This document shows, in pieces, positions 1,022 to 49,400 of a stretch of 64,000 nt of DNA. Both the position numbers and the translations under genes were made by a program. The stretch covers positions 62,001 to 126,000 of the forward strand of contig BGZK01001021.1 of the NCBI GenBank assembly GCA_005406025.1, in the 5' to 3' direction. The notes below the pieces were generated by a model. That model made no database searches. It was given only the letters and a program-made list of their open reading frames with translations, and was not told the origin of the DNA. The stretch comes from Eumeta japonica. Taxonomy: Eukaryota; Arthropoda; Insecta; Lepidoptera; Psychidae. Each line of letters begins with the position of its first letter. Position 1 is the first letter of the stretch.

Positions 1022-1275
1022 CTATGTGAGAAGGTGCCTCTCTCGACATCCTCTCCGGACAGCCGAACGTGTATGCCCTCCTTGAGCAGAGAGCCGAACG
1101 CCATGGCCTCGGCGAGCGCCCAGTCCACCGTGCGGTTCTCCACCATCTCCATTCTGGTCTTCAGAATACGCAACAAACCCTTGTGGATCTCGAACTCAGC
1201 AGCGTTAGGTGGCGGGCTCGAAAAGCGTTTACCGATATGGACCAAGGTTTCTTCTACAACGCCGGAGGGTGGCAT
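1022..1275 (-). CDS. Ogdh: Ogdh coding exon 14 (last in window)
   Basis: 254 bp, acceptor GTTTGCAG, donor ATAG|GTGAAC. Contains [60 protein letters not shown] and [11 protein letters not shown], then a codon split after two bases. The next exon should begin by completing Arg and reading HHVLHDQ-like residues; it is beyond the left edge. Confidence 0.95.
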
Positions 1276-4200
1276 CTGCAAACAGTAAGAGAACGATTTA
1301 TTCTTCTGATTTCAAAAAAATATAATAGTCTACAAAATACCTTCTTTTATTCCAATATGAAAAAAATAAAGAGGAGAAACTTAGGTTTTCCACTTTTCTG
1401 TTTATTTTGATATTCTCAAACTGCATATCATAATATGAATATGTACCATTCACATGGTAATATTTTATAATGGGACATATATAAAATTGATTAATGAAAA
1501 ACAATCTCCACTAGGCAGCTCACTTTGTTTTCAAAAATAATTAAACCAGGAGACTATGTAAATACATATCCTAATAATGAAATACATTCTGGATATGGTA
1601 CCTTCAAGGGGTCCTTGCCCTCGAAGAAGCCAGACCAAGGCGAGTCGAGCCAATCTTTGTATTTGATATGTGTTTCCTGTTTCGCCTGAGTATAAGCATC
1701 CTCACAAATCTTCTCATATTTGTCCTTCACATCTTTTACTTCCGCCGCGGTGACGACGCCTTCGGCGATCAACTGGTCCGCATACTTTTCCAGAACTGAT
1801 GATATAAATAAAAAATATTTACACAATTTTTAATATTTTTTATACAATGTTAATAGTGATGTTTACTTGTTATTTTCCATTTGGACAATTAATCTTGATT
1901 ATATGCAACACAAATTAATCCACAGAGGTGCCTAATGCATTTGACTACTATAAAGCTCTATTTTAATACATATGCAATAATTTTAAATGTAAGCTAGTTT
2001 TTTTTTTTTTTAACATATACAAAAACACACAAAAGTTTATCAAGTTTTGTATATTTTAAATGTTGCTTTATCAAGTGTATATTATTATTCAATCTCCTTT
2101 TAAAAACAATTACCTTTCTTAGAACCTCAAACAAAACAACTGGTAATTTATTAATACATATCAATGACAATGCTCTTAATTGTTTTTTAAATAATAAACT
2201 TTTCGTGTTGGACTTCAAGTTTACCATCAGAGCTAAAATCGGTTTGAAAACTAATTATTATTCAATCTAATCATAAAACGCTGATAGTTCAAAGCTATCA
2301 AGTGGTTTTGAAAATGTTATGAAGTCTACAAAGCAACTATTAAAAAACAACCTAAGTTTTGAAAGTAACTACACAGGTAAAAATTGTGCATTGTTTTTAA
2401 CTCAGATTATTTTTAATTGACCCAATGGTGACGCATTCTCTTCTGCAATTTTTTGTTTCAAATGAATCTATTATCATAGTTTGTATAAATTCCATAATCA
2501 ATACTCTCACAATACTATATAGACTTAATTCCTTTAGTATCCACACAAAAAAACATGCCTAATCCTACAAAAGAGGTAAATCTAGGTCAGACTTTAATGT
2601 CAAAACATATTTATAGTGCTCGATTTTTATCAGCAGAATGGTATGACTTAACAAGTAAGCTAGACATTGAGACAAGTCGCCACAAAATACACATACCCGG
2701 TTTAGTGTTCCTGATCTTGCGGTACATGAGGGGCTGGGTGAACATCGGCTCGTCGACCTCGTTGTGGCCGTTGCGGCGGTACGACACGATGTCGATGACG
2801 ACATCCTTGTGGAAGGTGGCGCGCCACTCGGCCGCCACGTTGCATACGTGCATCACGGCCTCGGGGTTGTCACCATTCACGTGGAATATCGGAGCGTTAA
2901 CCACGCGGGCCACGTCTTAAGAGAATACATGGTCATTATTAGGTGAAGCAAATCCTCTATATGATCATTTTGTGGTATACTTTTAAAAAAGTATTAAGCA
3001 AATAGGCACAAAGTTGAATATAATTATTCATGTTCATGTTCGCATGCAATATGAATGATTCTCTTTGCAAAATTAATAAAATACTTTTTCTATTTTTTAA
3101 TGTGTGCCATGTGTAGATTATTTCAAACATTAATATGTTATCATAGAAAAGACTTTGTGTTGAGTTTATGTTTTATGTAATATAGAGATGAAGATATAAA
3201 CATAAACATAATCTATTATTTTCAGCAGCTACAAAATGAAAAAAACAGTATATTTTTGGTAACTTTTAAAAAATTCATACAAGTTATAAACAAATTCCAT
3301 TATTATTACTAACTAATTTAATAAATTATTTTTTTTACCACAAAATACCACGAAGCTGTATGGTGAAGTAAAAACTGTTTATGTCACCATACATTTTTGA
3401 TTTTAATTGATTTTCATTTTACAAATACATATTAAATGAAATACAATTCAGGAGCCATCACAAAGGTGTGCTTTTCACTGATTATTATGTCATACATTAT
3501 CTCATTATATCCAAACAGCAATTTTATATATAGTTATGTAAAATTGGTTCATATACTATAAAGCAATTGAATACATCTCTAAAATGTTAAAGTGCCAAAA
3601 AAATTGGCAAAGAGCATGTCGGACCATGCTCATTATAGATAGGGTTCCGAAACCGTTATTACAAAAAGTGCACTAAAAATGAAAAAAGTAGGTTGTTAGA
3701 CTTTTTCCGTGTTCCCCCACACAGAATAGTTATAAGCACTTTAGTCGCTTATAACTAGAAAAACAAGTAGGTATGTCTACTATTACTATTAAACTAATGT
3801 AAACTAAAATGCATCAGCAAGTGCGTATCTTCATAGGACTTACGTCCTTTTGTTGAGAAGTACAGTTTTTTTAGCAATAACCCAAAAATAGTATATCTGA
3901 TTGTATTCAAAATAATTTTCATTAAAAGTATTTATTAATGCAAACTTTGTAATTTTTTTCATATTTTTGGACATACGGTTTACAAAACAGGGGGGGACAA
4001 TTTCTGCAAGTTTCGGAGCGATTTTTCCGAACTTATTTATGTAATTAGAAAAATTGATCAAAACCTAAGTGTTTTTGAAAGAACTGTCAAAATATGTGCC
4101 ACTTGTTGATGTTTGCTAAAAAAAATTTCTTTCAGCTCTTGTATGCCGTGCTCCCCCTAGAAATATTTATCTTTATTGTTTAACCACCAAACTAAGTAGC

Positions 4201-7200
4201 AGCTCGTACAAGACGCCTATACTATGAATTTCATCAATATAGGTCTTATAGTTTTTGAATAAAATACCTGTGACACACAGATAAACGGACATGAAGAAAC
4301 TATAAGGGTTCCGTTTTTGCCATTTTGGCACGGAACCCTAAAAAATGCATACAAAAAATCAAAACTTAATTAGAAAAGTACTTTTTAAGAATCAAGGATA
4401 TATTTGCTTCATATTGCATTACCATTTTATAATCATTTTGACAATATACAATTAATTAGTTTATCTCACCTGTGCAATAAGCAGAGGAACGCGAATGCCT
4501 AGGATCAGTAGTGAAACCGATCTGGTTGTTCGCGACAATATGTATAGTGCCGTGCGTTGTGTAAGCTGGTAGGTCTGACAAGTGCATGGTCTCAAATACC
4601 ACTCCTTGGCCGGCGAACGCGGCGTCGCCGTGCAGCAGAATAGACATAACCTAAGAGATACATTAAGATAGTATTTTAATGAAAAATTTATTAACTTGTT
4701 TTAATTTAGATATGTATTTTATATTATTATTTAAGTAGACTATTTGTTGTCTCCAAAATGGTCCCCCTTATAGAAGTATTATTACATCGTACTACAAGAG
4801 CGACTAACATTTTTCTTAACTACTTAATAACTTGTTTATCACGGAATGATTCCAAATCATATATTTTTAGTATTTAAACAATTCAAAAGTTTAAATAACG
4901 AGTGGTCATGTATCAAATTTAATTGTCTAATTTGAAGAAAAATTAATTGTTCACTTTTGTTTTGGGAGATAACAGAAATACTAATTCATTAAAAACAAAT
5001 ACACTATATTGACATATTCAATCACATTAAAATATTAAAATAAATATGACATAATAATTATACAGACTCATATCATGTTCAAATCCGGGACTGAATATTT
5101 AAAAACAGTGAATCTATAAGAAGCATACCTTCTTGCCCTCGTTGTCGCCGCGATAAAACTGTTCAGCCCTGGTCTTGCCCTGTACCACAGGGTCGACGGC
5201 CTCCAAGTGTGACGGGTTGGCGCAAACGGCAAGGCGGATATTTTTGTTCGTAACTCGATTCAGACGCTCAATATACGTTCCCAAGTGGTACTTAACGTCG
5301 CCGGAACCCTATTGCGGAATTTAAATTAATATGCTTGCAATCTGAGAAATTGAAATTGCGACGGTCACGTCAAATACGAGCTTGAAAGACATGTGATTTC
5401 AAGTTTTTAGAAAATTATAAATCATATTTGCTTCGACATATTTAGTGTTAGATAAATCGTTCTCAGTAAGTACATTTTTTTGTGACTATATGAAACTCAC
5501 ATCGTCCTCTGCCTCTAAGCCAGCAAACTGAGTGAAGAGCTGATGCAGTGGTTTGCGACACACATTGGCCAAAACATTGAGGCGACCTGAAAACCACCAT
5601 ACATTGAAATACCATCTTTTTTATGACCAAAATCTATATTTATGTTCAGATGAACCAATAACAATTAAAATTTAAAATATCAATATTTATAAGAATTATA
5701 CATATTGAGTTTCGATTATATAAGATTTGGACATGTGAAACCTTAACTTGAATGTGTACTTATCTTGATACGTATATGTTACTTATGGTTGAGATTATAC
5801 TGGCACTCAATACATACAATCTTAGTTTTAATATAGCATACTAATATGGAACTTTGTACTGTAATTCAATAACCTCTGTGTGGCATTCCCATGATGATGG
5901 ACTCGACACCGAGTCGAGTGGATACATCTATGACTTGCTTCATAGCCGGAATTAAAATCTCGCAGCCTTCAAGACCGAAGCGTTTCTCAGATGACCATTT
6001 CTTGGCTAAGAAGTTTTCAAATCTATGCAAAATAATGGAAAAATAATGCAATTTAAAGGATAGAATTTAATGTCATACATAAAAAATGATGCTTGTAAGC
6101 TCATGAATGTTTATTATTATTATTAAAAACTCATGCCTATTTTTCAAAAGGATAGGCAGAGATTATACAGTTCCATGTGATACGATATTTGCATATCTAT
6201 CTTGCCTCACTGCGAGATACATCAATAATTTCATACAAGCTCTTTGGTTTCGGGGTGTTCAAAATTTGGCCTCTTTTCAATATTCCAACAATTTGGTCTA
6301 TATAGAATTTTTGAGGCGATCCTTGCAAATCTTTCCATCACAAACATTCGCTCTGTAAATTCATTTTGTCAGTCTACTTTTCATTTCATATGAATGTTAT
6401 TTAATTCATTATAGTGGAATCTCAATAACTCGAATGTCAAGGAGAATGCAAAAAAATTCGAGTCAACGAGTTTTCGACTTAACAAGTACTTCGAGATACA
6501 TATGACTGTGTCGACAAGGAACTAACATAACGTTCACAGCTGTGTTACTTAGACAGTTTCATGAATGTATTCATTCATGCATGCGTACAAGACAAAAACA
6601 ATAGATTAGAAGCCCTGAACCCGACATTCATTTTGGAATTTATTGGTATACATTCATTTTGGAATTTATTGGTATTATTTCGTGGAATTCCAAGACGTCA
6701 TTATATTTTACCAACTACAACTTACGAAGTCCTCTTTTTGAAATTCGAGTTATAGAATATAAATATGTATTATCAATACTTCGTAGAGAAATAACATTTT
6801 GTTCTAGTTACGAAGTCTAAATAATTTGACATACCGCATATTTAGGGGTTCTTCAGAAGGGGATGGCAATTTTTTTCAACTTACTGAGGATTTTGACTTA
6901 ACGAGGTTCGAGTTATTGAGATTCCATTGTATTTCTAATTTCATCTTAAATGTGCTGTTGCATCCAATATATAAAAACGGCTGTAGTAAACCCTAAGAGA
7001 TGTTAATGCATACAAATACAACAACAAACTCACTTGTAGTCTCAGATATGGAACAGCTATATTTTTCTGATTAAATATATTACATGCATGTTTCTTAAAA
7101 TGATTGTCTATGGATCTACAAATTAATTAATTAATTTAAATAAATACATACTCAATTTTTCATTTAAAAAATTGCAAAGGATATAGATCCAGTTTTTATG

Positions 7201-10200
7201 ACATACTTTTATTTATAGTTAATGAAATATACTATTTAATGAACATTTTCAAAACCGTAACATTAATTACTAATTTTTACCTGTAACTTCAATCACATGG
7301 AAACAGAACCTTTATTATGATATGTAAATAAGCTAATCTTTTAATAAATATTTTGATAAATCTAGATGCGCAGTGTCATAGGTACTTGTATGTATATATA
7401 AACTTATGTAGTGTAGGAATTTTCTGATATTTTTCGATAGGCCAAACCATAGTTAACAATATTAGAAATATTAAAAAATATAGCAGTTACTCTATTTATC
7501 AATTAATAACTTTTTCCTATGGCCTCGCCCATTTGAATTAAAAATCTTGATCTTCATTGAAACCTCAATTCCAAACCTGATGCACTATACTGATCTTGAT
7601 CTTGTGTTTCAATCTCTCTCCCTTTCCCTCTAGCTCTCGCTCTGTCACTCCATATCATGCCTTATTCTATATCACCTCTAATCCCCTTCTCTCTGTTTCT
7701 CTCACTATGAATCCTTATTTCCCTCCTCGATATAGTGCTTTCTAACAAAGTTAGCAAATAAAAATGGCAAATAAGATAAGTAGTTAATAAGTTATTTGAA
7801 TGTATTTTTTTTATAACTTACTCAACATGTATTGGTGTAATTGACAATATATGCAAATAAATAAATGACTGACAAACGATAAGTAGCCCATGTCATTCTC
7901 TGGGGTTTAAGCTTTCTTCGAACTAAAATACATCTAAATCAGTTCAGCAGTTCAATTGTGAAAATGTAACACATAAAATTATTTTTAGATTTATAATATA
8001 TTTTAAAATACATTTTACGACCTTAATTCAATATAGTACATTAAACATTATTTTAAATAATGCAAAACCTTTCTTTTAACTCATTTCAAACCATCTTTGT
8101 ATCAAACAAAATTGATTCACTGATTTGGCAGTAAAAATGTGAGTTACTTTTGCACTTAGAATACACAAGCATTGACACTAAAACTAATTCATTAATGTAC
8201 AATCCATTCTAATTACCCAGCAGCTCTTGTAAGTCTAGCCAATATAAGCCGTTTCTCGTCAGGATTCATTTTGGTGACACCAGGAGGCTCCATGCGCTGC
8301 CTGATCCAATTACATTGTTCCAGAGAATTTATAAACATAAATTCTATGCCGATATTATTGCAGTATGCTTGCTCGAGACGATTCAGGATCTCCCTAAAAA
8401 ACAAAATCAAACAAATGTAAAATACCATTTGGTTATATATAAAAAAACACCAGATCTATTCAAGTGATTTCATTACAGTCTTACAATACTAATTTTTAAA
8501 TAACTGATTTAGCATTTTTTCATGAATAAACATTGTCGATTAATCGGGCCTGCAATTTGACACATATCAAATTTTTTTAAACCAACTAAATTTTCGTGAG
8601 ATTTTGATGGTACAAAATGTATATCTCGCCTCAAACCATGCTGAAGTTATCCATGAAAACCTAATTTAAAAATTCACCTACGTGCCTGTACTGACAGACA
8701 AAGTTTTTCAAAATAGTCTTATTGTATTGTGTTGCAGTGCCTAAGTCAGCCACAATCAGTTTTTACCACCTATTTTCAATGTACAGACATGACGTTTCTA
8801 TAGTTTTATTATATGTACAAATAAGAAATAACTTAGTGATGATCTCGAAATATTTTACTCAGATATTTTTTTCTAACACTTTTTGTTTTTAACTTTTTTT
8901 ATGTAGCAGGCATTTTTCTTTTCCATACAAAAAAATGGGCTACCTTAAAAACTATTTGACAGCAGACAAATCAAACGTCACTGCCATGTAATAAAACTTT
9001 ATTGTATCTTCTAATTCACACCTTTTTAAACAGAAATAAAAAATATTCATTAACGTAAAAGATTTTATTTCTTAAAGATAACCAAATTTTTATTCAATAT
9101 TTTCAGTAGACATTAACCATCCTATATTATTTATAAAACCATTGATATGGTTAAGAAATTTCATTGCATGTTTTTATTTATTTTCATATTATTTGTTCAT
9201 ATAAATTTATTACAAAAAAATATGTCAATATAGTTTATATTTCTGATCATAGAAAAAAACTATGGCTTACCTAAGTGGTAATGCTTTGTCTTTTTCCCCA
9301 ATAAATGTTGTCGATGGCAGCTTGAACACTCTATCCATGTCCGCTTCATCTAAAAATTATCGAATGTGCTTATAAGAGAGTGCCACTCTTATCAAATCTG
9401 TGAATTTATTGTTTGATAAATAATGTTAATTGTTTATTACTTGCTGTAAAGCTTTTGCAAGTGACTTTTTCAAATGAAATGAAAATCGGTATAGCTAATC
9501 TAAGACAATTACTTAATCTGTTTTTTTTTATAAAATAAAAACCATACCCATTAACCAAGAAATTGAAGCAAAATATAGACATAAATATATGAAAATAGCA
9601 TGTTATGTGGAAAAAAATTATAAATATATATAGAGGAGTAAGCACATACAAAGCATAGATTAGATAGAAAATATTATAGGTACAACTTAATAATCATATC
9701 CCTTTACTAGCAATTCATTATTATGTGCATGATTCGCCAATTTGTAGTATTGTTTTTAAATTAAAATCAATCATTGAAATTTTAAAAATAAACGACAAAC
9801 TATTTTCTTTTATTTTTAATGAAATTGTAAAAGTTTTAAACAATATTTCAATATAACGTAAAATAGTCTAAATCATCATCAAAAACTGTAGAAACTCTTA
9901 ATTATGTTATATCAACCTTACAATAAATGAAGCACACGATTTCAAAGATCGGATAAGTTTCAAACAGATCGTGCAATTTTTTGCCACAACAATAAATATA
10001 TATACACAGTAATTGCAACAAATCCAATAGGGTCAGTCATGCGAGAGATTGAATGAAATGAATGTATACCTTAGTGAGTGCGATAGTGAATGAGGACTCA
10101 ATTGTGAAATGGAAAATAAGTGTTAAAAAAAATGATTGGCGTGCTAGCCGAGGACGAAGTGCTGTAACACCCATCTCAGACAGTTATGGCAATTTTCTGA

Positions 10201-13200
10201 AATCTCACTTGAACAACAAAAATCGGTGCATTAATGAAAGATAAAAAAAAAATACGAAATAAAGACGATCCAAGTTAAACATAGAGAAAAAAGTAAAATT
10301 AATTTGGAAAAATAAATCGAAGGTAAAAGTCACGCTAAAAACTGCATTTAAATTTTCCAATAGATTGACAGCTATTCAATTACTCTTGCAGTTTCTGCGT
10401 GCGATAAACAGACCAATTTCAAATTTTACTACTCAATTAGAAGCCATAACCGTCCGTATTTCATTTTTATACATAATCCATAGAGTATTGGCGGTATACA
10501 GTGAGCGGACGGGCGGCGAGCGGTTCAGAGACTACGTGTTGTGTCCCTTACCAAATCTGTAGCTGTTGTGTATCACCTCCCTCTGATTTTTACCCGCCAA
10601 ATGAGCGTTGGCAATTTCCAGGGGGTCCAATTTCGCTATATGATGTCCCCGGATCTGTTTTTCGGTTATACACTCGTTTAGTATATTTAGCATTCGCCGC
10701 ATTTAAATCGATATTATTGAATTCTTTGGGCACATTAAAATAAATTAGGCTAACAAAATCAAACAACTCAGTATAACAAGCGAAAATAGAAATGTGAAAA
10801 CAATAAATAAATTAGAATGATACTATGCTCGTTTTGTATTATAAATGCCAGTATCAGAAAAATAAAATACATGATGTGTTTTCTTTGTTTAAAATAAATA
10901 TAACAACAATTTTAACCAGTAAAACACGCACAGATACACATTTTTTAAAATAAAAGTTAGTATGTGCCAAACTCTCACAAACATTAGGACGCTCTATAAC
11001 ACATGGTAAAAAATGTTTTAGTATTATGTAAAGGAAGAAAGGAATTAGATCGACACATTAAATTACATTACTTGTGATTTACAGTTATACCTATATAAGA
11101 TCAATTTGTAAACATTACTTAATTGCATTACCTACCCCTATCATCTAAAAAGCTTGTGGATGGATGTTTAGAATAACATAGTGTGTTCAATTTACTACAA
11201 AACTTTCAATTCTAAATATTGCCTATACAATATATGCTACATGTGAACTTTAAATGGATGAATGAGTATCAACAAGCTAAATTACTTTCTCCTCTAGTAA
11301 AGGAATATGATTGATTTTACTTTTAAAATGAAAATTATTACTACAGGAATTAATATCGCTGTTATTTTCGCCCTATTAATAATATAACAATAAATAAACA
11401 TGATATGTGCGTTATTATTTTTTTTTAATAATGGATTAAAACTTTTTAGTTATTAGTTCTATGGTGTTATATTTTTATGTTACAACAGTTAATTACAAAC
11501 ACTGACCGATATTAACAAAAAAGCTAGTCTCAAATATACTCAATAAATATTCAGCTATTCCATATTATTGTTATTCAAAACAAAAATTACCTATTAAGCA
11601 TTATAAGTGACAATCTTATAAGATAAAGTCTTAAGGATAAGTGATACCCAACACCTAGTTTTCTAAACTACACTTTTCTTTTGCACAAAGAATCAATATG
11701 ATACAATACACAACTAATCTAAGATGCGACTAAAACTACTAACTTCCGTCCACCTTCAAAAGCTTCGATTCATTGTAGAAACTACATCTACTACAAGATA
11801 AGAAATTTTCATACTTGACCGAGTGCTGACAAGTTTTACGATACTTCTGAAAATACATCACAAATCTAATCTACCCAAATTACATAAAAGGAGCATTAGA
11901 GTGAGTATACAAGTGATTCCCATTTTTTATCTTCAATCAAAAGAAAACGCAATACCTCTCCAGTTAATTTTACAAGTGGAAATCGCAATGGGTCGTGAAC
12001 TAAATTCATAATAATATTTCAAAATAACAAGAAATTACGTACATCTAAAATTAATGCATCACTGGCAGTAATTTCATTTTAACTTTTGAGGAGGATGTAC
12101 CACACTTTATATTGAATGAAATTTCTATTTTTTATCCTTTTTTATATACAATCTCCATATATAACAACATAATCCATCAGCGACCAAACATATAATATGG
12201 CACATCGGCATGTTGAAAGAGGAAACTGGTCATATGAAACAATCAAAATATTTTACAAATCATAATTTCATAATTTTCAAAAATATGTGTCATATAAATC
12301 TGAACTTATTACAAAACAAGTTTTATCAAAGGTTTATAGATAAAATATTTAAAAAAAACTGTAATTTATAACAAAATACAAAACCGATCAGTTAACGACC
12401 CATCAATTCCCCACCAAATACCCTTTCATACCGAATCTAAAGTTCTGCCTAAAGACGGCCTCGCTAACGAAGCCGCGGACTTGGCCCTCGCCGGCCGCCC
12501 TCACCGCCGTGTTGCCGGAGGTGATGCCGAGCGGGTCGAGCTGCGCGACCAGATGACCACGCGACTATGGTTCGACACATAATGCCAATAGAGTGACGAT
12601 AGGAAATTTTATGATGTAGAATTTCATTGTTAGTACACAAAAGTCGCGGTTTATGCGATACAGGAAGCCTTATGTTATATATTAATATTAAGGATTTAGT
12701 AAACAGTATTGAATTAAGAAAATCACAGTTCAGAAGTATGTAGGTGATGACGTGCATGTTGATCTAAATTCAATACGATAATTGTTCATAGTTGATGATA
12801 GTATTATTTAGATTAAACACATTGACATATAACAGAATTAGATGTGAAACTTGACAAGTGAGCATTAATTTAAAGATAAGGCTGCAAAATCAACAATGTA
12901 ATAATTCATCATCTATACCCTAAATTTGAATAGTGTTATTGTAAATGTAATTCAAACTTTGACTTGCATTTGTACAAGCTACACAATGTACCAATTCTGG
13001 GCACTAGTCTTTTCTAAGAAAAGATAAGTGGGCCTTATGCATGTTAACTCAATTAGTGTTAGAAACGTGGCACTTTATTGAAGATTCTAATGTGCCATTT
13101 TGTCATACAGATTTCGTAATGCCTCCTTCACCATTAAATCAAGAAATAATTAATATTTGGCATTTGCTTGTAGATTGGAAAAACACTCAATGGTGCCCGC

Positions 13201-16200
13201 CATTAAGAATGCAACTTTAGTCTACGTTGCAAAGGTAAGCATTTCGTTTGTCAACTTTTATTTTAATGTCAGACATAATTTTCTGACCATTTAATAACAT
13301 CACAGATAAAATTTATTATAACATTAGACGAAACATTTTACTAACTTTTTAAATTATGGTCTTATAATAGTTCACTTACAAAAATTTCAACTTACAAAAA
13401 CAAAGTAAATTCAAATCACACATTTCAAATAGTATATCTACTAATAACACTATCTGTAGCATTTGAAGCTATATATGAATATAACACGAGAGTTAGCAAT
13501 TAATACCATTATAACCACATTAAAACAATCAATTTCCTGTATAAAAACATACATATTATAATTTAAAAGTATCAATACATATTTTTTAATTAAAACATTC
13601 AAATACATTTTCCATTACCTTACAAAGAATAGAACAAAAACAGCATGCCACATTATTTTTAATTTGCACATATTTAGTTCCAAAATAACATTTCACTACT
13701 TAAATATAATTCATGCATATTCTCACTCCAATGAGACTAGCAATTCTTTTAAATCGGCCCGGTATATTGTTATTAGTTATATTGAAGAAAAATTAATTAG
13801 TTGCTGAAATGGAAAATTAGGACTTCTGTATATAATCTAGTTTCCTAGTGTTATTTCAACTACTGACAATACAAATCCATTGATAGTAAAGAAAATAAAT
13901 GATACAAAATAGTAAGACAAATATTTTACATTTATTACAATGATCTAATATGGAACAGGTTCATGATACTATAATATTTTATTTGAAAAAAGTATTGGCA
14001 GATATTTTTAAACAAAAAAAATAGGCATGTTTCCGTAAACAACAATTAATTTTTTTATGAATATCTATCTACCAATACTAGTATTGAACCTATAAAGCTA
14101 CGAGAATGATTACTTTAAGTACCTGAGAGTAGAATAATAATGTATTAACTTTCTGATTGAGCACTTGTCAAAGACCTTGAATCCGCGGTAGAATAGCGGG
14201 TAAAAAAATTTTAGAGTCGGTATTTCACGAGGATCACACATTACTGTCGTCTATTGTGTAAACCAGGCTATGGCAGGAGATAAATACAAAATTAACAATG
14301 TTCAAGCTCAAACAAGAACATTTGTAACTAGCTACTGAATAAATATCAGTTACTGTTACACCATAATAAATTCTAATTAATCAAAGCGTAAAAGGAACCA
14401 AAACGTTCTTGTTAAAAGCAAATCTCAACGACTACAGAAAATATTTCATATCAACGAAAAGTTAATAAAACATCTATATGCTTATCATTTAATTTGCAAA
14501 AGCGATCATTCTCATCGCGTCCTGACTGTATGTGTGTCGTACCGAATTTGAAATATTTCCTCATGATGCGCTCGGAACGCGTGGCGCGCGTGCCCAGCTC
14601 GGGGAGGTCGGCGGTCGTGATGCCCAGCGGGTCCACGTCCGCCGCGAGGTGGCCGCGAGCCTGTCGCCGCCATATACGTACCATACCATTGCTTAAACTA
14701 TCAACTTGGACATATCTTATCCAGCAATGTCAAACTGTGTATGACCGTTTAATGTCATAAATAACTTTTTCAATATTTTGTTTTTCATTGTGTTAGCTCA
14801 TGTTTGAAAATTGTTGGTGTAATTTTTCGGGTTGAAAATATTCACCTGTTATCTATTTATTTTTAGTACTTCTAATACTCACTTCCATGTCTTAAATTTC
14901 TATAAATGCAAAGTTTTCCCTTGACATCATGAATTTCGTTATAACAAATGATATAAAAACATTTGAATAACAATTAACATAAAAGAATAATAGATATAAA
15001 GCTAAGTATTTTTCCATTTTTTTCACTATCAATATTTAAAATATAGGTACGCATAATCAGCAAGTACTATTACTTAACAAACCTATCATTCTAAATCTTC
15101 ACCTACTATAGAATCCCATCTAAAACATATGAACATCTTTTTAAATACAGAAAAGTGCACACTTAAGTGATTGTAAGATTACATGGAACATTGGAATAAC
15201 AAGGACTATCAAAACTATCACATTGTTTCTACTGTCAGGATAAAAATCAACAGAAAACCAAAATGGATAATTTAAGGGAAGTGCAACCAATAATTAAACA
15301 GTAGTTCTCATGTATCGGACTAAAAACATTTTTCACCTGGTAACTCCTGATGATTGCTTGTACTGCTAGATGATCATCTATGATCTTTTCATTTACTGGT
15401 GATCCTGAAAATTAAAACAATTTATTATCTATTTCAGAATTTGTCAATACACGATATAAACTCAATTTATAATATCATTAACAGAAAATAACGAAATTCT
15501 AAAATGAATACACAAAATTCAACATAATTCAGCTATCATACATTATCAACAATTAAATTTAACTGATAAAAACAAATAATATTTAGCATTTGTTCAGGAA
15601 TACTATTCTGATTATGAAAGTGTCATTTTTACCCGAGTACTTGTAAAGAGTATATGTACGTAGGTACATGTACTTATCTGTTCCCGTGTTGTTTGTAAGC
15701 TACTTATTCATATAAATGACTTGTTAGCTGCGTTTTAGAGTTGTGCTAGTTACAGGGCTTGTGTCGTCATATTAAAACAGACATGGCAGACATAAATTGC
15801 ATAATACCCTAAGCAATAAAATAGAAAAATTTTAGAAGTTTAACGAATTTTACTTAAAATGAAACCTTTTATTTGATACTAAACTCAATTTTAAGACAAG
15901 TCACCTCTAAATTAATTTTACGTTTTGAATTTTTGAAATGCGATATGTATTATTTGATAAATGTTTTTTTATCAAGAATTTGTGCAAGTATATGAGCTAT
16001 TTATTGTCATTGTATCTTATCAGAAAACAACAGTGTTAATGTAAAAGAAACTAGCTAATTTCATTATATATATGCATATAGAAATATTTACACCCTATAA
16101 GCGAAAGTTATGCTATATGCATTTATAGTCCAAGACTATTTGGAGTTATTTCACCTAGACTGGTTGTTTATTATGATTATACTGTGGCTATAGATTGCAA

Positions 16201-19200
16201 TAAACTATAATGACAAAATTATTAAATAAAATGTAAAACATTAAACATAATACACATTTGCAGACCGATTTTTTCAATTACATTAATTTATCAGAACTAT
16301 GAGCAATACCCAGAATTAGAATTGAGAGTGGCAATAGGAGCAAAATCAATAAGCGAACCAGAATCATAATCAAGAGTGAGGCCAGGATCAAAGTTGAAAA
16401 TAGGACTAGGGTCAAAATGAATGTCAGATTGGGATCAGAATCAAAAACATAACCGATATAGGATATAGATGACAATCGAGAACCAGACTAAAATCGAGAA
16501 CAGGATCGAGATCGAGGTTCAAATCAAGTGTGGGACCAGGATGACAATCAAGAGCGTAAATGACATGGGAATTAGTATTGAAAATCAGATTAGGATTAGA
16601 AACAAAAGTGGGACTGGAACTGAAATTGAGAACAGAACCAAGCTCGAAATTGAGCATGGAATCAGAATCAGAACCAAAGAGTGTCTAAACTGGAACAGGG
16701 ATTGACGGCAAAATCAACTAATCTAAAAGACGAATTAACTCATGTCTAAATGGGTAAAGCGCCGGGCTTAAGCTACTGTCACAAAAGCATTTTCATTTTA
16801 TTAAGAATAGATTTCTTTAACTATTCAATAACATTGAGATATAATACTGAACAAGTGTTAATTGTGGGACCAAAAGCACAGCATACTAGTTTGTGAATGC
16901 TGCCTTAATACTTTCGTGAAGTAACCCAAGGTTCAGATGATGGTTTTGGAAATGTAATTGTACAAAATCTTATTGGATTAGAGTAGTGATGGTGTATGAA
17001 CAAAAACATCAACATAAATTAGCTTCCACATGCAAAGATTATGTTCGAGCATTTCAAATTATATTTTATATATGAGATAAAGAAATTATGATATAAAATG
17101 AAATAAAATATAAGTGTACTTATTTGTACAGTAAAAAAACTATTAACAAGAAGGGCGTTCAATAAAAAGTGAAAATGAGTATGTTGCCGGTAACTTATAT
17201 TAAATATTATCTTACAGTAGTTGCCTTTTAGTATAATATGATTGGTATTATAACTTTTTTCTAAGCTCAAAATTTCTTTTTTAAAAAACTCCACCCTAGG
17301 CACTTAAACATTCCTGTACTGCAGCGACTACTCCTCCATGATCTTTGATTCACTGCCTTTTTAGATAATCCAACCTTGGAAATAGAAATCACAAGGTCAA
17401 GATCGAATAAGAAGGTGAATATAGAGGATGCTAAGTACTTTGAAGTAACACCTCGAATGCTGCCATAGTAACAGCAGACTTGTAAGCCGAAGCATTGTTT
17501 TGATGAAACAAAAAAATTTTTGCTATTTTGATTTGTCATTTCTTTGGAATTTCATTATGCATTTTTTATTTGTTCTGCATGCAAAGAGCCCGTAACAGTA
17601 GCTTCAAGGTCGAGATATGCTACCATGACCACCCCTTTACTACCCTGGAAAAGAAAACCCATAATTTTTACAAAACAACTTTTTAAATTTCTTACACTTT
17701 GGAGATGGTCTTTTCTAAGTCATAAACTGTAATTTTGTTTTGGGATCATAATGGTGAAGACATTTTCATCCATGTTTGTAAGACGAGCTAAAAATCTATC
17801 GGAATCTTGTAATAATTTTAAAAAAAGTCGAAAAATGTTCAGCCTTGTTTTAGTGCATGGTAAGCACTCTGGGGACCCATTACGCAGTACTTTTTTCATC
17901 CCCAAACCGTCATGTAAAATGCTATGAACACTTTCAATCGAAACCTTTGTTTCTTTGATTATAAAACGTACCATGACACAAGATCTGTTAAAACAATTTT
18001 GATTCGAATTTTGACTTTTTTTACCATTTCTTCAATCACCACTGTTGTTGGGCGACCTGAACGAAGGTAAGTTTTCGTGGATATTCTTCCACGTTTAAAT
18101 TCAGCGCATCAACAGGCAACTGTAGTATACAATAGAGCATTAACTCCTAAAGTATCTTGTAAGTCTTTATACTGAATACCCCTCCTATAAATATGGTGTA
18201 CATAACTATCATAATTATAATTAAAAACTCATGAAATGTTATCATAAATTGAAAATTAATATTTTTGAATTAAATAAAGATACAAAAAGGAGATTTCTTG
18301 TAATAGAAAAAGAGATTCTAATTTAAAGAAATCAGAACAAATAACAAAGGAAATAAAACTAAAATGCAACATTTTAGTCAGCTCCTAACAATAGCATATC
18401 ATGGCATTCAATGATAAAAGATATACATCATTTACCGTGACGTACGTCAGCGTCTAACTTTAACGCCAAAACTGATACCTTTATCAGGAAAATTTATATT
18501 TTGATGCTGATATGTGCAGATTGCAACATATCAATCCAACATTTCAAGTTCATAAATACGGGAACTATTTTCATATAAACAATGAGTAGACATTTAAGTA
18601 CCATTGAATTCTGACCAGAATTTAGAAAACATTAATGTAAAAATATCACATACAACACTGTATTAGTATTATAAATTTGTTGGATATGGTGTTTTCATTA
18701 ACTTTCATAAAATTATTAAAGTTGTATTTCATCCATTAAGATATACAGAAAAACGTGAACTTAAAGCATAAATATTTTGGTAAATTTGCTAAACTTTATA
18801 ATGTAAAATAACTACAATTAATAGCACATTTTACTCTCAAAAAAAAAGCTATGGTGTAACTATAAAAATTGTCCATTACCTGCAGCTATAGATGGCATGC
18901 CAGCGGGAGATGGCACCAGCGAAGTTAGAGGAACTTCGTTCCGACTGTAGGGCGCCAGGTTCGGAGGAGCCGTATACGCAGTTCCCGGTTGCGCCCCATT
19001 TGTCGCATTGCGGAAGAACGCGTCCCATGACTGTCAATAAAACATATTTTTACAAATACTATGTACACATACCAATGTAACTTCGGGGTTATATAATTCA
19101 GTATTCTATAGGAAAATCAATTTTTTGTTGAAACAAAAATCTGTAAAAACTCTATTAAATAATATAGATCTATTAAATTATAATGAAATTTCCAAGAAGA

Positions 19201-22200: not shown

Positions 22201-25200
22201 CTTGATAGAAAATTATGAATTAATGGACAATGCCAATACGATGTGGCAATCTAATTACAAAATTGGAACCATCTACTTGGCAATGGAGTCAAATTCACAT
22301 TTTTTATTGGATTTATAGATATTATTTAAGGATTGGTGTAGTGATTTATCAAATATATTACTCAATAAATCTTACTAATACTCATATTACTAAAGTTATT
22401 TCATTGTTTTATATAAATTCAACGGTTTTGCTTATGCCATTTTCCGGTCTAAGTACTTAAAAATTCAAGAACTCCACCATCACTAAAGTTGTAGTGTAAG
22501 TAACAACCAAATAAATAGAGATCGGGGTCCTGACATTGGCACAAAGTTGATTCATATGACCATGGACTATGATTTTAAATTTCCTCATACTAAAATAAAA
22601 CGTTTGCCTATCTCACTGGCAAAATCGAAATATGACTACAAACACAGACATTTCTCAATCGTTTTGTGACATTAGAAATATGAGATATGGAACAAGGGCA
22701 TGTATATGGAGACAAATGTTTAAAAAGAATGAAACCGTGCAGAAACACGAGTTGGATATACATATTTAGTTAGCATCATTTGCAATTTGGCATTCATAAA
22801 CGCCGATGCAAACCAGTTTTCATTGTGGCGTCTTCTCGAATTGGCAGTTCACGTAATGTCAATTTCTATACACGAAATTCAACACACGTAATAAATGTAA
22901 TGTGTGTGACATGCATGATGTTTTCCTATTTAGACACATTTATCACTACCATGGCCGACTAGGATGATATTGTATGCATATTTTTCCTAAATAGGTGATA
23001 CAAAAGAAAACTTTTACTTTGAATATAATCAGTTTTAATTTCAATAATAAAATATATTCAGTTAAGAATACTTTTTATTGACAAATAAGTTAATTGAAAT
23101 TTGATAATGAATAAGGAAACTTTTATCTTTTATTTTATTAAAAAAATCATTCCACTTCTAAGTGTTGTATAAAGGTGTCTTGACATATTACAATAATATC
23201 TGCAAAAAAAAAAACACTGTTTGCAAAAATCTGTGTTAAAATAATTTAATTGTTTTCGAAATCGGTATCGCCTAAAGGTATGCCAGAAGCAGACATATCA
23301 CAGCATTCATCATTTGATATCCTTTTGATTCAATAGTTTACATTTTATTTTTAATTTTGTACACTTAGATATCAAGTTTGGTTATCTCTTGTGTATACAT
23401 ATTCAAGGTGAATACTTTGAAAAGACAGATTTTAGTAATAAATATTATAATTTTTGAATATCTATTTTTTTGGCATATTTCTCGTTAAATATCAAAATGA
23501 AAAAAATATTCATAAGCACATAGTGCTTTCTCAGTAGATATATATAATTTTCATAAGCACATTTGTATTGGGAAAGAGATCACTGTATTTATTACATTAT
23601 TGTATTACTGAAGACGACAAGAAACTTACATATATGTTACATACATACATTTCATATACATATATACATATACGTTACATATATACAATTATTATACTTT
23701 TTTTATCTTTTAGAACAAAAACTTACCGCATGCACAGAATTAGGATCCGAAAGCCATGAGTTGTACATAGTTTCCACGTAGGCTGAACTTGAACCATTTA
23801 AAAAGGGTTCCGCCGCCGCTGAACTTTTCGGTCTGCTGGCCGATATTGTCGCGACGACAGTCTATAGAATCAAAAAACACAATTTCTTTTTCACATGAGA
23901 AAATATCAATATACATAATGTGACATACTTATACATAAGCAATTTCCAAAAATGTGTATACCACAAGAGATCTCAGAATTCTGCACATTAATTAAATTTG
24001 CTATTAGACAGTCTGACGGAATTTAAAGGATACTTTTAAGTGAAATTAACAACTAACTTTGTGAAAATAGTGATTATTTTTAGCTGTTTAGGATTGAAAC
24101 ATTGTAGGAAGACATGGGTACAGTGGATATATTAAAGGCTTTTTGTAACAAATTAATTAATAAATTATATATATAATATATTTTCATGTTAATGTATTAA
24201 AAATTACAAATGGAACAGCATGCTTTTTTTTTTCAAAAGATTCTACAGGCTGTGTATTTACAAGTCAATAATGATAAAATAAGACAAAAATATAGAATAA
24301 ATATGATGAACATCGAGGTCTTTATCCCATCACATATCATACCAATTTCCTCAATTTGTAGCTGTAAGAAAATGCCTAAAAATAGCTGATAAAAGAAAAA
24401 GTAGCCTATTATTGTTGATTATTTTCTGATGTGAACATTTCTGCTCCAAATATGTTAGCTCAGTTGTTTATAGGTGTGATGCAAATAGAGCACATCTCAA
24501 GCGACACCTACTCAGAATAATTTACTAAGTGCAAAACAGTAAAAAAGTTTCTCCATCAAAATAACAGATATCAAGTAAAATAACCTGTACTATTGAAACT
24601 GCAAACACAGATTCATGTCTATATAAAATTAAGAATTTTATTCAATAAAATTTTTAATAAATTCATGATACTCTTTTTTAAAAAGCATGATTTAGTTGTT
24701 TCTATATAGAAAATGTTTTCGTATGATGTACTCTTGCATAATACTGAATTAATTATTATATAATAAAAATTCATAAGTTTTATTAAAAATATTATGATAT
24801 AAAAATTCCAAAGTAACACTTTAAAGGCATTTAATTTTATACCATGAAATATTTAATAGTTAAAAATATAAGTACTATCTGACACAAATTTGTTAAGTAC
24901 TTTTACAACAGAGCTGATAATTTTTTACACATATTTACCAGTTCTATATAACTCTTTTGTGATTTTGATAGTTGAGAATGCAAGTCATTCATCATCATAT
25001 TTTTTGCATCACTATAATGGCAGATAACATTTTATTTTAGTTTAAAGTTTAAGTAGGTTTTTTATGGTTTTATAATTTCCCTCAAACATTATAAGGTTAT
25101 CATATATAGTTATGTTGATATAAGGTACAATGCTAATAAGTTCTTTATACCTTAGAAAATATTTTGTGCATCTAGAATACATACACAAATATATAATGAA

Positions 25201-28200
25201 CTAGATGGAATTTAGTGATTTATAATTTAAATCACCAAAATAGTTTAGATTCACCTGGTTTTATATAATTAAATATTATACATAATTTGAACTGGTGCAT
25301 GTTATTTGAAACAATGACTATCTTCATTTTATTTTATGCATACAGAAACTTGGAAGTTATCAATTTATGAAATATACGTATTAAGAATATGTGTAAGGTA
25401 TAAACTATCATTATTTTGCATATATATATATATATTATTTGCATGTAATAATAATTTCAAGTTCTTCCTAGTATTAAATTAATAAACTTTAACATATACT
25501 AAAACATTATAATTTGTTTTAACATTGCAGAAGATAATAAGGAAAATCAAACCTTAGAGAAGGTCCGGCTGAATTTTAAGGACATGCAATGTTCAGCATG
25601 CATTAACTTAGAGGTTATGACCTTAATCATTATTGTTGAGGAGATTCCATCAGTGGGAGATTATATGAATTATAAATATTAAAAATATCTGATTACCACC
25701 ATGCCATGTAAAAAAGTAGAAACAAAGGAGCACATGCATGATAAGGATGAATACCAAAATCTATATATATATATATATATATATATATAACAATAGTACT
25801 TGGTTGTCTCTGTACATTGACAGTATGTACGAAAAATGGAGAAGGAATGATAAAAGAAAAGTAATATAAGAAAATACAATGATATTTAAATTTTTTTTAT
25901 ATGTCTGCCTGTTCGAATACATCTCTGAAATTACATCTGAGTAGATAGAGCTTAGCTTGAAGCAAAATATATGCTTTACTTATACAAGTTAAATCGGATA
26001 CCAGAAAAAAGTTTTCGCCATTTGCAAATCTAAATGAAGGTAACCTTTCTTAAATAGTATGCTAATAGTTGCCAGTATTAAGGCTTAAAAAGATGTCATT
26101 ATTTGAATGAATAACAACATTCAAGTGAAAAAAAGAACATAAATCTATGCTCAACCTTCTGATCATGACACGCTTGACTTATTGAGGAATATACAAGAGC
26201 AACTATGGAGACAGTGGACCAATGAATAAGAGAAAGGGTTGAGTTGTGATAAAAAATTTATGCAAGGGAGCGAATTCCACGTGTGCAAGCCGAAGGCGAA
26301 AAACTAGTGTATAATAAATAAATATCAAAATGTTACTATGGATTGGATTTACTTAGAATATCGTATGATCAGGCATGAATGGGAAGGAGTATGAACGTGA
26401 TTGAGCCTCCCTCTGACGCCCAGTCGGAGAACATTATTTCAAAAATGATTTGATAAAATTTGAGATTATCATAAGAATATGACATGTTAATCTCATCAAT
26501 ACCAAAAAACAAAATCTTGACCCACATTTATGAATATGGGAAAATCATTAATTTTAAAATCCTAAAAATTTTATTTTTATACTTTTTCCCACATTTCAAT
26601 TCAGTGAAAATTTACTAATAAAAATAAGTTATAATAAATACATATAAATTATTATATAACAGAAAACATGATACTAATTAAGTTATATTTGTAAATTTAA
26701 TTATGAGAAAACATATACGCATTAATACTTTGACCCTAGATTATAATATTATCTCTTGGAATGCGATAGTTCCACTTAAATGTAATTGAACTTCCCTATT
26801 ATAAACATAACCAAGTGATCATAAATTAATATTATAAAATGAAATAATTTGTAAGGTATTTATGTTCAGACATTATGCCGAAGCACAGCTTGTACAAATG
26901 AAATATATTTAAGATGTACTATGCCATAAAAACTTTACTTTTTTTCACAAAAACTTTATAGCAGAGTTGGTAGTCTATAAACAATAATTATATATAACTA
27001 ATATACAAAATGGAACACAAGTATACAACCTTCAGAGCCAGTTAGACAATTAAAAAGCATGTAATCATGTTATATCGAATGGGGCATATTTGCATAAAAA
27101 TAAAGTTACTAAAAACTAGAATTCACAAAGACGACACATGTACCTAGAATGACACCCCCAAAAAAATGATGGAATTTGTTCTCCCTACACTGCCTTCATA
27201 GTGCCAACAACCATGTGTTTTAAAATATTTAATAATATGTTCCAAATTGAAGTTCATAATCAATATATTTTTCATTTCTAGACATAATAAAAATGTATTT
27301 TGTGATTTTTATTTATACAAATTTATTATTCATTTTTCACATCATAAATCACTAAGTTCTCAAAAATCATTTGCAAAGATATATAGTAGAGCATCACACA
27401 TCATATATATGGTTAAAGTGCAAATAATAACACAGATGCTTCAAAGTAGTCACTGATAACAAAGTGGCCCAACAAGGTGAAACAAGATCCGATTACCTGT
27501 GACTGTATAGAAAATAATATATGATCCTCATAGATGGTTTTATTCAATTAACTAACTTGTGCAATTGGTGTTGTCAATATGCCTGCACTAACACTTCTGA
27601 GAAATGATCATTTAAAATATTTTAATACTACATCAAAGGTTTCAATTTCTTTAATCAATTTTCATCAAAATTTCCATATCATTTTACATAAATTATGCAT
27701 TTCTTTGAATCACACAGTATGATATATGACAAGACATATATCAGAATAAGTAGGCATCAATATGAATAAAAGACCAAAAGACACTAATATATTAAAATCC
27801 ATTGTATACTACCAATTTCATTAATACAATATTAAAAATGTAAAACCAATACTATTAAATTATGATTGTGATTGTAAATCGTCTTCCTTACCTGTGGTTT
27901 GTTTAGGAGCCATGATGCAAACCGTTCAGAGCCTACTTTGTTTGACGCTTGCAAAACTATTCTTGCCCGATGCATTCTGTCTGTCTTTGGTGTTTTTTGC
28001 TCCTATCTTAGTGTCAGATCTGTAGAAGGTATAAAATATGAGAGTTATGCATGAATATGCAATTACAATCTGGATTTTATAACCAATTCTTCACAATACA
28101 TTTATTTGTTTATTACAAAAAAAAAAATATTCTCAATCATGTTACATAACATTACTTGATTTAGGTCACATTCAAATTAAAAAAAAACATTATTTGATGT

Positions 28201-46400: not shown

Positions 46401-49400
46401 AAAAATCAATGTTGAGCGGTTCCAGTTTACGATCACCTAGAAAAAAAAATTAAAAATGTATTAATAAAGGACTGCACTGATATAAACATTTTATATTAAA
46501 CATGTATGTGGTAAATAAAAATCTCAGAGCATCTTGATTGAAGCATTAAAAAACAATATTATAATAATCAGAATATATTTTATGTGGAGAAATCAGTAGA
46601 GAAATAAACGTGATAAAGAACCATCCAGCAGGATAATCTAGGAGGTTTTTGATTTGAGGAAATAAATAGGCAAGAAGTAAATAGGCAAGAAGAACAATGC
46701 AAGCTCATATTCAATCTAAATACATTTTGTTTGATAAGTTTGAGTATATACTGAAACAGGCAAGCTCTCCTGTGTATGCAAAACTAGAAGGTGTGTACAC
46801 TTGTTGGTGGAGAGTAAATGAAGCAAACATCATACAATTGTCTGTCTGTCAATTTGAAAGTCTTTCAGTCTAGTTTTTCGGTACCTACATGTGATGGTTC
46901 TGAGACAATTTACATATTTGTTATTAGATTTTTGACAAGAAGAGGCATAGCTTAACAGTATCATTTTAATTACAATCAAAATGAGGCTAAAATTAGTGTT
47001 AAAATTAAAAATAAATCCAGTACAATATTTTAAAGAAATATAACTATGAATAAAATTTATTCTAATTTCTGTTTTGGTAATTTTAAAAGAACCATGCTCT
47101 CTAATAAAAGCAGAACTGCTACAGTGTAAACAAACAAAAAAGGTTTCAATTTTTATGGGAATTGTTTAAAAAAAATCAATATAAGCTAACTTTGACATTT
47201 TTGCTAGAATAAAAATGTATTATTATTCAAATGTATTTCTGATTCATGTAGTATGAGTTAGACAGACACCTTTTATTAGATTTTCGACATTTTTTAATAA
47301 AATACGTTATCAGAAAAAATAAATGGATTTTTTTTCTGGGTAATCTGTCCTCCGATTGATGTTTGATTTGTGGGATTCTGATATAAAATTATTTAATAGT
47401 TCAATGGTTTTATGAAATGAACCCCCTTTTTTAAGTTATTAATTTTAAATAGATCATTTTAACACTTTTCATTACCAATATTTATGTATTTATTAAAAAA
47501 AATTATAGAAGTACTAACTATTGAACTATATTTTCATAATCTGTACCTTTGATAGAGCTTAAGTACTATTTGTGTAGAGAAAGTGTGTATAAGGTTTTCC
47601 TTACTATCTTAGTGGGTAATGAATGCTTTTCGTATGTTGATTTAGAATATTGTTTCTTGTCTGTTTATTTTCATATAGATAGTTGTTCAGTAGTACAATA
47701 TATCTTTATTTGTCGCTTTTTAAATTTTACACACTGTTTTGAATTGTTTAGAGTATAGTATTACTATGTCGATTTAGTATTTGAATAAAGTTAAATACAC
47801 ACGGAAGTAGTTCTGTGATGTGCATGATATTTTTCAATGTTTCGCTTTTGTATGTTTATATGTACAAAACAAAGCTTTTACTGGTTTTTTTTCTTTTTGG
47901 CAAAAACTTCCTATAGCAACGCCATATATAGAAAATTAATATAGGGTCACTGGCAAATACAATAAAGAATGTAGTCATGTAATAGTTTAACACGGCATTT
48001 TATTCCTTAGAAGTTATATGTATTCTTTTGTACAGAGCATCAATTCACGCCTTAACTTGGATTTGGACGAAGATTCTATTTTCTACAAACTGGGATCATC
48101 TGGCTTGATCACCTTCAGCGATTATATTTTCCTCTTGACCGTATTATCTAGTGAGTATTTATTTTATTACTTTACACTAAATAATGATATTAGCTGTCAG
48201 CTAACACATAAACTGAAGAAAATCGATATATCTGTTATCGGTAGAAGGAAGAAAGGGCATGTCATTCGCTTTTCAAATTTTCCAAAACTTAAACAAGTTT
48301 AGTTTCTAATCGGTTTGCATAGTCATCCACTGATACGCTCGCACCACTTTGATGCGCTATGACAATTTAAATTTATACTACATATTATGTCGCAGACATT
48401 TGTGTAGTTTTATTTGAACACAATACAGGATTATGTTATTTTTTTCAAAAATCATGAAGAGCGATATGCCTTGCTTCATTAACATTAATTCATTAATTCC
48501 ACCACAAAAAAAACGTAAAACAATAGGCATGTTTTTCTAATTCTAATAAAATGTACTAAACGTTAGTTATTTTTGATCTAATAAATTTTATTAGACCTTA
48601 ATTGATCCGTCAATGTAATATTATAAGAACGTCTCGCAGTTACATCGACGGTCATACCAACACAATGATTCCTTTTTTATATTTTGACTGAATCTTCATT
48701 TATGCGCCTAACTTAGCGTGGAGAGTCTAACGTCCAAGACCCTCAATATAAAGCAAAAAGATCAATGAATGTGAGAATCAATCAGTCGAGGGATGATAAA
48801 AAAATATTGTATTAAGAGCCTATCACGATACCCTAGTCTTTTCTAATATTTCGAAATATGTACTGTTACGTTCATAGCAATAAGAGAGAATATAAAAATG
48901 CGTCTAGTAAATAAAACCAATTTTAACATTTCCAAATGAATACTTTTATTTTCTTACATACTGCCTGTACAACGTCGAATTATATCCGAACATCTCGAAG
49001 TCTATGCCGTATATAAGAAGCAGATCGTCCAACATCTCCCTGTCTAGCTGGCTGAAGTAATACTTTAGCAGGGCCGTCGTATTCTTGCCGTCCCGCGATC
49101 TATTCATGACCGTGCGCAGACGAGTCCTGCGATCTCTCACTCTACGGCCGAGGACGTGTTCCAAACCTAGTTCGTGTATCACGTAAGCCGAGTCCCTAGC
49201 CAGGGTCTCCACTTTCGCTATCACGGTGAAATTCACCGAGCAAGGCGTGCAGAATTCTGTGTAAGGCGCCCAATGCTCGTCGTACGCGTTCCTTCCATCC
49301 TTGTGGCTCTTTATCAGATGGGCCACGAACTCGTAGAACGTCGGCCCGTAACTCCTCACGTTACCGAATATCTTCTTGGCCCTCTCCCTGTGCTCGGCGA

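What the first reader, a model, noticed from the sequence alone, without database searches (positions are those of the whole stretch)
10552..14660. Three mutually exclusive Ogdh exons for one segment
Seen: 5A (118 bp), 5B (133 bp) and 5C (103 bp) each start after a phase-0 acceptor, end with one base of a codon, and encode variants of RGH..(A)..DPL. Each length is 1 mod 3, so a reading frame survives only with exactly one. All three have weak acceptors without pyrimidine tracts. Mammalian OGDH is known to be alternatively spliced in this segment with effects on calcium response; a three-way choice in an insect is, as far as I know, not well described.
Basis: partly seen in the sequence, partly recalled or inferred. 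Interest (0 to 1): 0.85.

Follow-up and report, generated by a model that had tools for sequence, protein, structure and literature searches.

The report
Three alternative exons in moth Ogdh
A moth or butterfly gene for a key energy-metabolism enzyme carries three interchangeable versions of one exon, very probably spliced in one at a time, and none of the three keeps the calcium-binding motif that the matching exon has in vertebrates.

Summary
On the minus strand lies a complete, lepidopteran-like Ogdh (E1o) gene. Its exon-5 slot holds three homologous exons, 5A (118 bp), 5B (133 bp) and 5C (103 bp). Of eight possible inclusion patterns only the three single ones keep the frame. Orthologues of each type sit alone in this slot in NCBI isoforms of Manduca sexta and Choristoneura fumiferana, and unfiltered models chain them in the same order. 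A mutually exclusive cluster is very probable. It is old within Lepidoptera and already in public gene models; my literature searches found no description of it. The vertebrate 4a/4b pair occupies the same protein segment.

The calcium reading is not supported here. Among parsed C-type proteins, ADLD is kept in 84 of 84 outside the lepidopteran set and in 0 of 28 inside it; DADLD occurs in none of 229. The window's 5C reads ANAHLA. A three-way choice persists although its vertebrate-like calcium motif is gone.

5B is an outlier: 55-59% identical to seven other B segments that share at least 86% with each other. It may be changing fast or decaying.

No RNA data were examined. Exclusivity, tissue use and enzymatic effect are inferred.

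The parts
14543..14660 (-). exon 5A (118 bp), ARGHLAADVDPLGITTADLPELGTRATRSERIMRKYFKF + 1 base
   Evidence: groups with lepidopteran A-type at 96/75; 33 of 39 residues identical to Manduca isoform X3 P0144
12432..12564 (-). exon 5B (133 bp), SRGHLVAQLDPLGITSGNTAVRAAGEGQVRGFVSEAVFRQNFRF + 1 base
   Evidence: groups with lepidopteran B-type at 99/87; 25 of 44 identical to Manduca isoform X1 P0130; divergence outlier
10552..10654 (-). exon 5C (103 bp), IRGHHIAKLDPLEIANAHLAGKNQREVIHNSYRF + 1 base
   Evidence: lies among lepidopteran C-type (87/0, and 91/81 without P0034); 30 of 34 identical to Manduca isoform X6 P0014; one match in the genome at E<=0.001
15337..15404 (-). exon 4, constant exon before the cluster (ends ...IIRSYQ)
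9271..9349 (-). exon 6, constant exon after the cluster (DEADMDRVFKLPSTTF...)
27892..27975 (-). exon 1, coding part, MHRARIVLQASNKVGSERFASWLLNKPQ
23727..23861 (-). exon 2
18880..19030 (-). exon 3
1022..8393 (-). exons 7-14 (8217-8393, 5874-6022, 5501-5586, 5129-5308, 4470-4650, 2697-2915, 1602-1795, 1022-1275); the rest of the gene lies below window position 1
12629..12635 (-). TACTAAC, branch-point-like, before 5B, inside a 102-nt AG-free stretch (longest of 15 acceptors)
   Evidence: lead only
9692..9710 (.). arm of an inverted repeat in the intron after 5C; pairs with 11294-11312 in the intron before 5C (95% over 19 nt); would loop out 5C
   Evidence: 1 of 100 shuffles as good, six intron pairs tested, so a lead only
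11294..11312 (.). partner arm of the inverted repeat at 9692-9710

Best explanation
This is a cluster of three tandem, homologous, mutually exclusive exons in a lepidopteran Ogdh gene. Each transcript takes 5A, 5B or 5C between exons 4 and 6; skipping or double inclusion shifts the frame and should be removed by nonsense-mediated decay (shown: frame; inferred: decay). All three keep RGH.....DPL.I and exchange the 20-30 residues after it, in the segment that vertebrate OGDH swaps by exons 4a/4b. The sites are ordinary GT-AG with T-poor acceptors, so exon choice probably depends on regulators or intron structure rather than strong sites (inferred). The likely output is tissue- or stage-specific E1o isoforms that differ in kinetics or contacts (inferred). 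A vertebrate-type Ca2+ switch is unlikely, because no window exon has DADLD and 5C lacks the ADLD motif seen in other insects.
For: Frame: 3 of 8 patterns open. Three NCBI isoforms of one gene with different single types: Manduca X1=B (P0130), X3=A (P0144), X6=C (P0014); Choristoneura X4=B (P0131), X2=A (P0141), X3=C (P0017). 220 of 238 fetched proteins parse to exactly one type (112 C, 101 A, 7 B). Full-length ORFs whose longest contig is 3.6-4.9 kb carry C (P0008) or A (P0161, P0168, P0199) cleanly between exons 4 and 6; the gene spans about 33 kb here, so I take these contigs for transcripts. Same 5A-5B-5C order in chained models P0006, P0009 and P0115. RGH.....DPL.I invariant over 33 aligned isoforms of types A, B and C. 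Motif counts.
Against: No RNA from this species was examined. P0007, an NCBI isoform of Pararge (X4), joins a truncated B to C in frame, so exclusivity may not be absolute; nine of 229 parsed proteins hold more than one type, and unparsed P0115 and P0128 also chain types. Isoform models are predictions. The B type rests on seven single-type proteins, none of them on a short transcript-size contig. 5B is unusually divergent here.
Confidence: 0.87

Rival explanations
1. Only 5A and 5C are working alternatives in this species; 5B is a decaying or nearly unused exon.
For: Window 5B is 55-59% identical to seven lepidopteran B segments that share at least 86% with each other, while 5A and 5C fall within the range of their types. 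The 5B donor scores low (0.4, with approximate recalled weights), but so do those of 5A and of constant exons 8 and 13 (0.2). Achroia grisella rows list A as isoform X1 and C as X2 with no B seen, though only part of the hits was listed.
Against: 5B keeps an open frame of the exact type length (44 residues), AG and GT sites and RGH.....DPL.I; a TACTAAC lies upstream. NCBI isoforms of type B exist in Manduca, Choristoneura, Bicyclus and Bombyx.
Confidence: 0.2
2. The exons are alternative but not strictly exclusive; combinations with in-frame internal splice sites (such as truncated B plus C) make longer loops.
For: Pararge isoform X4 (P0007) is such a model; P0006, P0115 and P0128 show a similar B-to-C joint.
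Against: 220 of 238 proteins carry one type only. Full exons in pairs always break the frame here. The other models with more than one type are unnamed, hypothetical, putative or UniRef-only records.
Confidence: 0.1
3. The choice sets calcium sensitivity of E1o, as in vertebrates, with 5A as the calcium-responsive form.
For: Same protein segment as vertebrate 4a/4b (PMC7969005). 5A here reads TTADLP, keeping ADL.
Against: DADLD is absent from all 229 parsed segments; a D>A change at its first position is reported to abolish Ca2+ sensitivity (PMC7969005, section 34). In 31 of 46 lepidopteran-type A segments the place reads TTANLP. 5B and 5C keep no such motif here.
Confidence: 0.06

Closest known systems
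Vertebrate OGDH exons 4a/4b (PMC7969005: abstract, part 1 of section 3, sections 24 and 34, and search passages seen)
   Same: Tandem exon copies in E1o, used one at a time, in the RGHH..LDPLG segment; the human structure sequence aligns across the slot and both flanks, without gaps with 5A and with one 5-residue gap with 5C.
   Different: Three exons instead of two; no DADLD in any; AG-free stretch before the acceptor 29, 102 and 16 nt here against a canonical length of about 280 nt given for the vertebrate intron; introns of 1978 and 1777 bases inside the cluster.
Ogdh of other Lepidoptera (NCBI isoforms of Manduca, Choristoneura, Bombyx, Danaus and others)
   Same: Orthologous A, B and C types, in the same order where models chain them, plus an optional exon near the C-terminus.
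   Different: The window's 5B is much more divergent than the others are from each other.
Ogdh (Nc73EF-type) of other insects
   Same: A-type (ARGHL) and C-type (IRGHH) segments in Hymenoptera, Coleoptera, Hemiptera, Orthoptera and others.
   Different: Their C type keeps ADLD in 84 of 84 parsed rows, caddisfly P0037 included. The lepidopteran B type branches with lepidopteran A, but SRGHL-type starts also occur in two fly records (P0004, P0070), not in the tree, so a B-like exon may be older; third types of other orders were not sampled.

Membership tests
Mutually exclusive exon cluster | tandem homologous exons of similar length between two constant exons, same start and end phase, same splice-site class | tested here: met
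   118/133/103 bp, phase 0 in and one base out, all AG/GT; pairwise alignments
Mutually exclusive exon cluster | frame open only with exactly one exon | tested here: met
   3 of 8 patterns open
Mutually exclusive exon cluster | transcripts observed with exactly one exon and not with two or none | not testable with these tools
   no RNA-seq; indirect: 220 of 238 proteins single-type, P0007 against
Vertebrate OGDH 4a/4b-type switch | same protein slot of E1o | tested here: met
   (alignment to 8i0k and 7wgr chains); vertebrate exon assignment from PMC7969005
Vertebrate OGDH 4a/4b-type switch | one exon encodes DADLD (calcium site) | tested here: not met
   none of the window exons and none of 229 parsed segments
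Vertebrate OGDH 4a/4b-type switch | long AG-free zone with distant branch points before the downstream exon | tested here: not met
   AG-free 29 (5A), 102 (5B), 16 (5C) nt; 5B has a TACTAAC 65-71 nt upstream; branch points themselves not mapped
Competing RNA structure (docking/selector) control, Dscam-like | conserved intron pairing that is mutually exclusive between exons | tested here: inconclusive
   one pair around 5C, 1 of 100 shuffles, six pairs tested; no relatives' genomic DNA for covariation

The most novel reading that the evidence does not exclude
In the line to Lepidoptera the only exon type with the ADLD metal-site-like motif lost it, while a three-way exon choice was built (B arising from A) and kept. 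The ancestral calcium-type choice of E1o would have been rebuilt into a calcium-independent three-state tuning of the TCA cycle, for instance between flight muscle, fat body and other tissues.
Probability: 0.3. Interest if true: 0.72.

Novelty: new variant of a known kind. Interest (0 to 1): 0.5.

Why it matters
The same segment of a rate-setting TCA-cycle enzyme is swapped by alternative exons in vertebrates and in insects, but in Lepidoptera with three exons and without the calcium motif. That separates two ideas which the vertebrate system confounds: that the swap exists for calcium control, and that the segment is a general tuning site. It can be tested directly with moth and butterfly RNA-seq and with purified isoforms.

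Tried and rejected
Rejected: chance open frames (homology to isoforms); a fourth copy in the cluster or elsewhere in the window by the motif scan (none found); U12-type incompatibility (all AG/GT; U12 motifs not scored); steric exclusion by a short intron (1978 and 1777 bases between exons); Rfam families in 8800-16000 (none at gathering threshold).

Led nowhere: whole-intron duplex energies. There the intron before 5A against the intron after 5C was lower than all 24 shuffles, the introns after 5A and after 5B were beaten by 1 of 6, and the other four pairs were unremarkable; pairings over whole introns cannot be read as sites, so I did not use them. A search for a second Ogdh gene in the assembly never got an answer.

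Literature: ten searches; no listing showed a description of three Ogdh exons in an insect. Find-in-text in PMC3228551, PMC3303723, PMC7954323, PMC3923563 and PMC5740500 gave no OGDH or Nc73EF mention (OGDH itself was a term only, oxoglutarate in all five). The passages seen of PMC11089389 on Drosophila Ogdh1 do not speak of splice forms. PMC10003691 and PMC9871338 were seen as passages only. PMC3349724, listed, was not opened. Subscription papers and supplements were not searched; one on the mutually exclusive exome of Drosophila that I recall was not seen.
Full report
What is there. [quoted passage not shown] Thirteen constant exons were placed in the window, from the ATG exon at 27892-27975 (exon 1) down to 1022-1275 (exon 14). 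The rest lies on the same contig below the window, with an optional exon near the C-terminus and an intact end; the whole spans about 33 kb. Among the 238 proteins fetched, the best matches over exons 6-14 are lepidopteran (up to 97%), so the source is very probably a moth or butterfly (inference; the assembly has 702 Mb).

The cluster. All begin in phase 0, end with one base of a codon, and use AG and GT. Of eight possible inclusion patterns, the three with one exon have no stop; the pattern with none has 18 stops, the pairs 27-28 and the triple 23. A motif scan of the whole window on both strands found no fourth copy. T counts at -20..-5 are the three lowest of 15 acceptors compared, though the total pyrimidine count of 5B is ordinary. 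The donor scores in that call use approximate weights that I recalled; 5A and 5B score low (0.2, 0.4), as do constant exons 8 and 13 (0.2), while 5C is ordinary (3.9).

Relatives. Two protein searches were aimed at this slot: 605 proteins passed, 120 listed; 197 passed, 120 listed; one search gave 5. Of the 238 distinct proteins fetched, 229 were parsed and typed by script: 112 carry a C-type segment alone, 101 an A type alone, 7 a B type alone, and 9 carry more than one. The nine unparsed are P0002-P0005, P0093 (by eye a single C), P0115, P0128, P0136 and P0148; of these P0115 and P0128 chain types. Manduca sexta and Choristoneura fumiferana each have NCBI isoforms with A, with B and with C. 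Unfiltered models of Operophtera, Danaus and Choristoneura chain A, B and C in the window's order. Full-length ORFs whose longest contig is 3.6-4.9 kb carry C (P0008) or A (P0161, P0168, P0199) with clean joints; since the gene spans about 33 kb here, I take these for transcripts. One NCBI isoform model, Pararge X4 (P0007), joins a shortened B to C in frame and speaks against strict exclusivity.

History. In a tree of 112 segments (39 of 52 columns kept, bootstrap not settled), 5C lies among lepidopteran C types (87/0; 91/81 without P0034), 5A with lepidopteran-type A (96/75), and 5B with the seven B types (99/87). The B and lepidopteran A types together form a starred branch (99/96) inside the A side. 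This suggests an old A/C split shared by insects and a later A-to-B copy. It rests on few columns. Two fly records, P0004 and P0070, also begin this slot with SRGHL and were not in the tree, so a B-like exon may be older than Lepidoptera.

The calcium question. In vertebrates the exon at this slot decides Ca2+ sensitivity through DADLD; exon 4a is insensitive (PMC7969005, part 1 of section 3). That paper says several Insecta have SADLD, of unknown affinity (section 34). Among the 112 single C-type rows, I class 28 as lepidopteran (27 by name, P0008 by similarity) and 84 as other; of the 84, 78 bear names of other insects and 6 have none. ADLD is present in 84 of 84 others, including the caddisfly P0037, and in 0 of 28 lepidopteran rows; DADLD is in none of 229. 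The loss is not equally complete: P0017 (Choristoneura) keeps ADL, and the chained model P0006 (Operophtera, not in the count) reads ADMD. Rows are not independent species. The window's exons read TTADLP (5A), TSGNTA (5B) and ANAHLA (5C). The listed proteins are the best 120 of 605, so lower-ranked insects may differ; I recall that Drosophila has lost the motif too, but no call shows it. A vertebrate-style calcium switch is therefore unlikely in this gene. What the choice changes is not known; RGH.....DPL.I is invariant across 33 aligned isoforms of all three types, so the swap spares that core and alters the stretch after it.

How the choice is made. The introns inside the cluster (1978 and 1777 bases) are too long for simple steric exclusion. 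Frame-dependent decay would remove wrong products (inference). 5B has the longest AG-free stretch of 15 acceptors (102 nt) and a TACTAAC upstream; 5C has TACTAAA at -29. One inverted repeat, 11294-11312 with 9692-9710, would loop out 5C; 1 of 100 shuffles did as well, but six intron pairs were tested. These are leads.

5B. Seven lepidopteran B segments share at least 86% with each other, yet the window's 5B shares only 55-59% with them, at the same length of 44. 5A (77-87% to 26 same-length segments of 27) and 5C (76-91% to 18 of 22) lie within the range of their types. 5B is open and has splice sites, so I count it as an exon, but decay or fast change in this lineage is a real possibility.

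Verdict. A three-way mutually exclusive cluster is very probable, already present in public models and not described in the papers my searches listed. The point of interest is that the exon choice persists in Lepidoptera after the calcium-type motif was lost.

Noticed in passing
L082 and L083 joined below the window, joined positions about 15.68-15.79 kb (contig C1015, about 57.7-57.8 kb): An optional exon near the C-terminus (AKSHGSGGSWLSQLLG...EVPRTI) is present; relatives have isoforms with and without such a segment, so 3 x 2 = 6 isoforms are possible.
   Followed up: partly
window 48946-49650 (-): Open frame with Pfam Sulfotransfer_2 (E 2.5e-35). The Choristoneura model P0148 fuses a sulfotransferase domain with Ogdh, so the two are probably neighbours there too.
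   Followed up: partly
window 52762-53229 (-): 155-codon open frame that looks like the tail of a retrotransposon reverse transcriptase (recalled resemblance; no Pfam match).
   Followed up: no
P0001: A protein filed under 'bacterium LRH843' is an insect-like Ogdh fragment with an A-type segment, so that record probably holds insect DNA.
   Followed up: no
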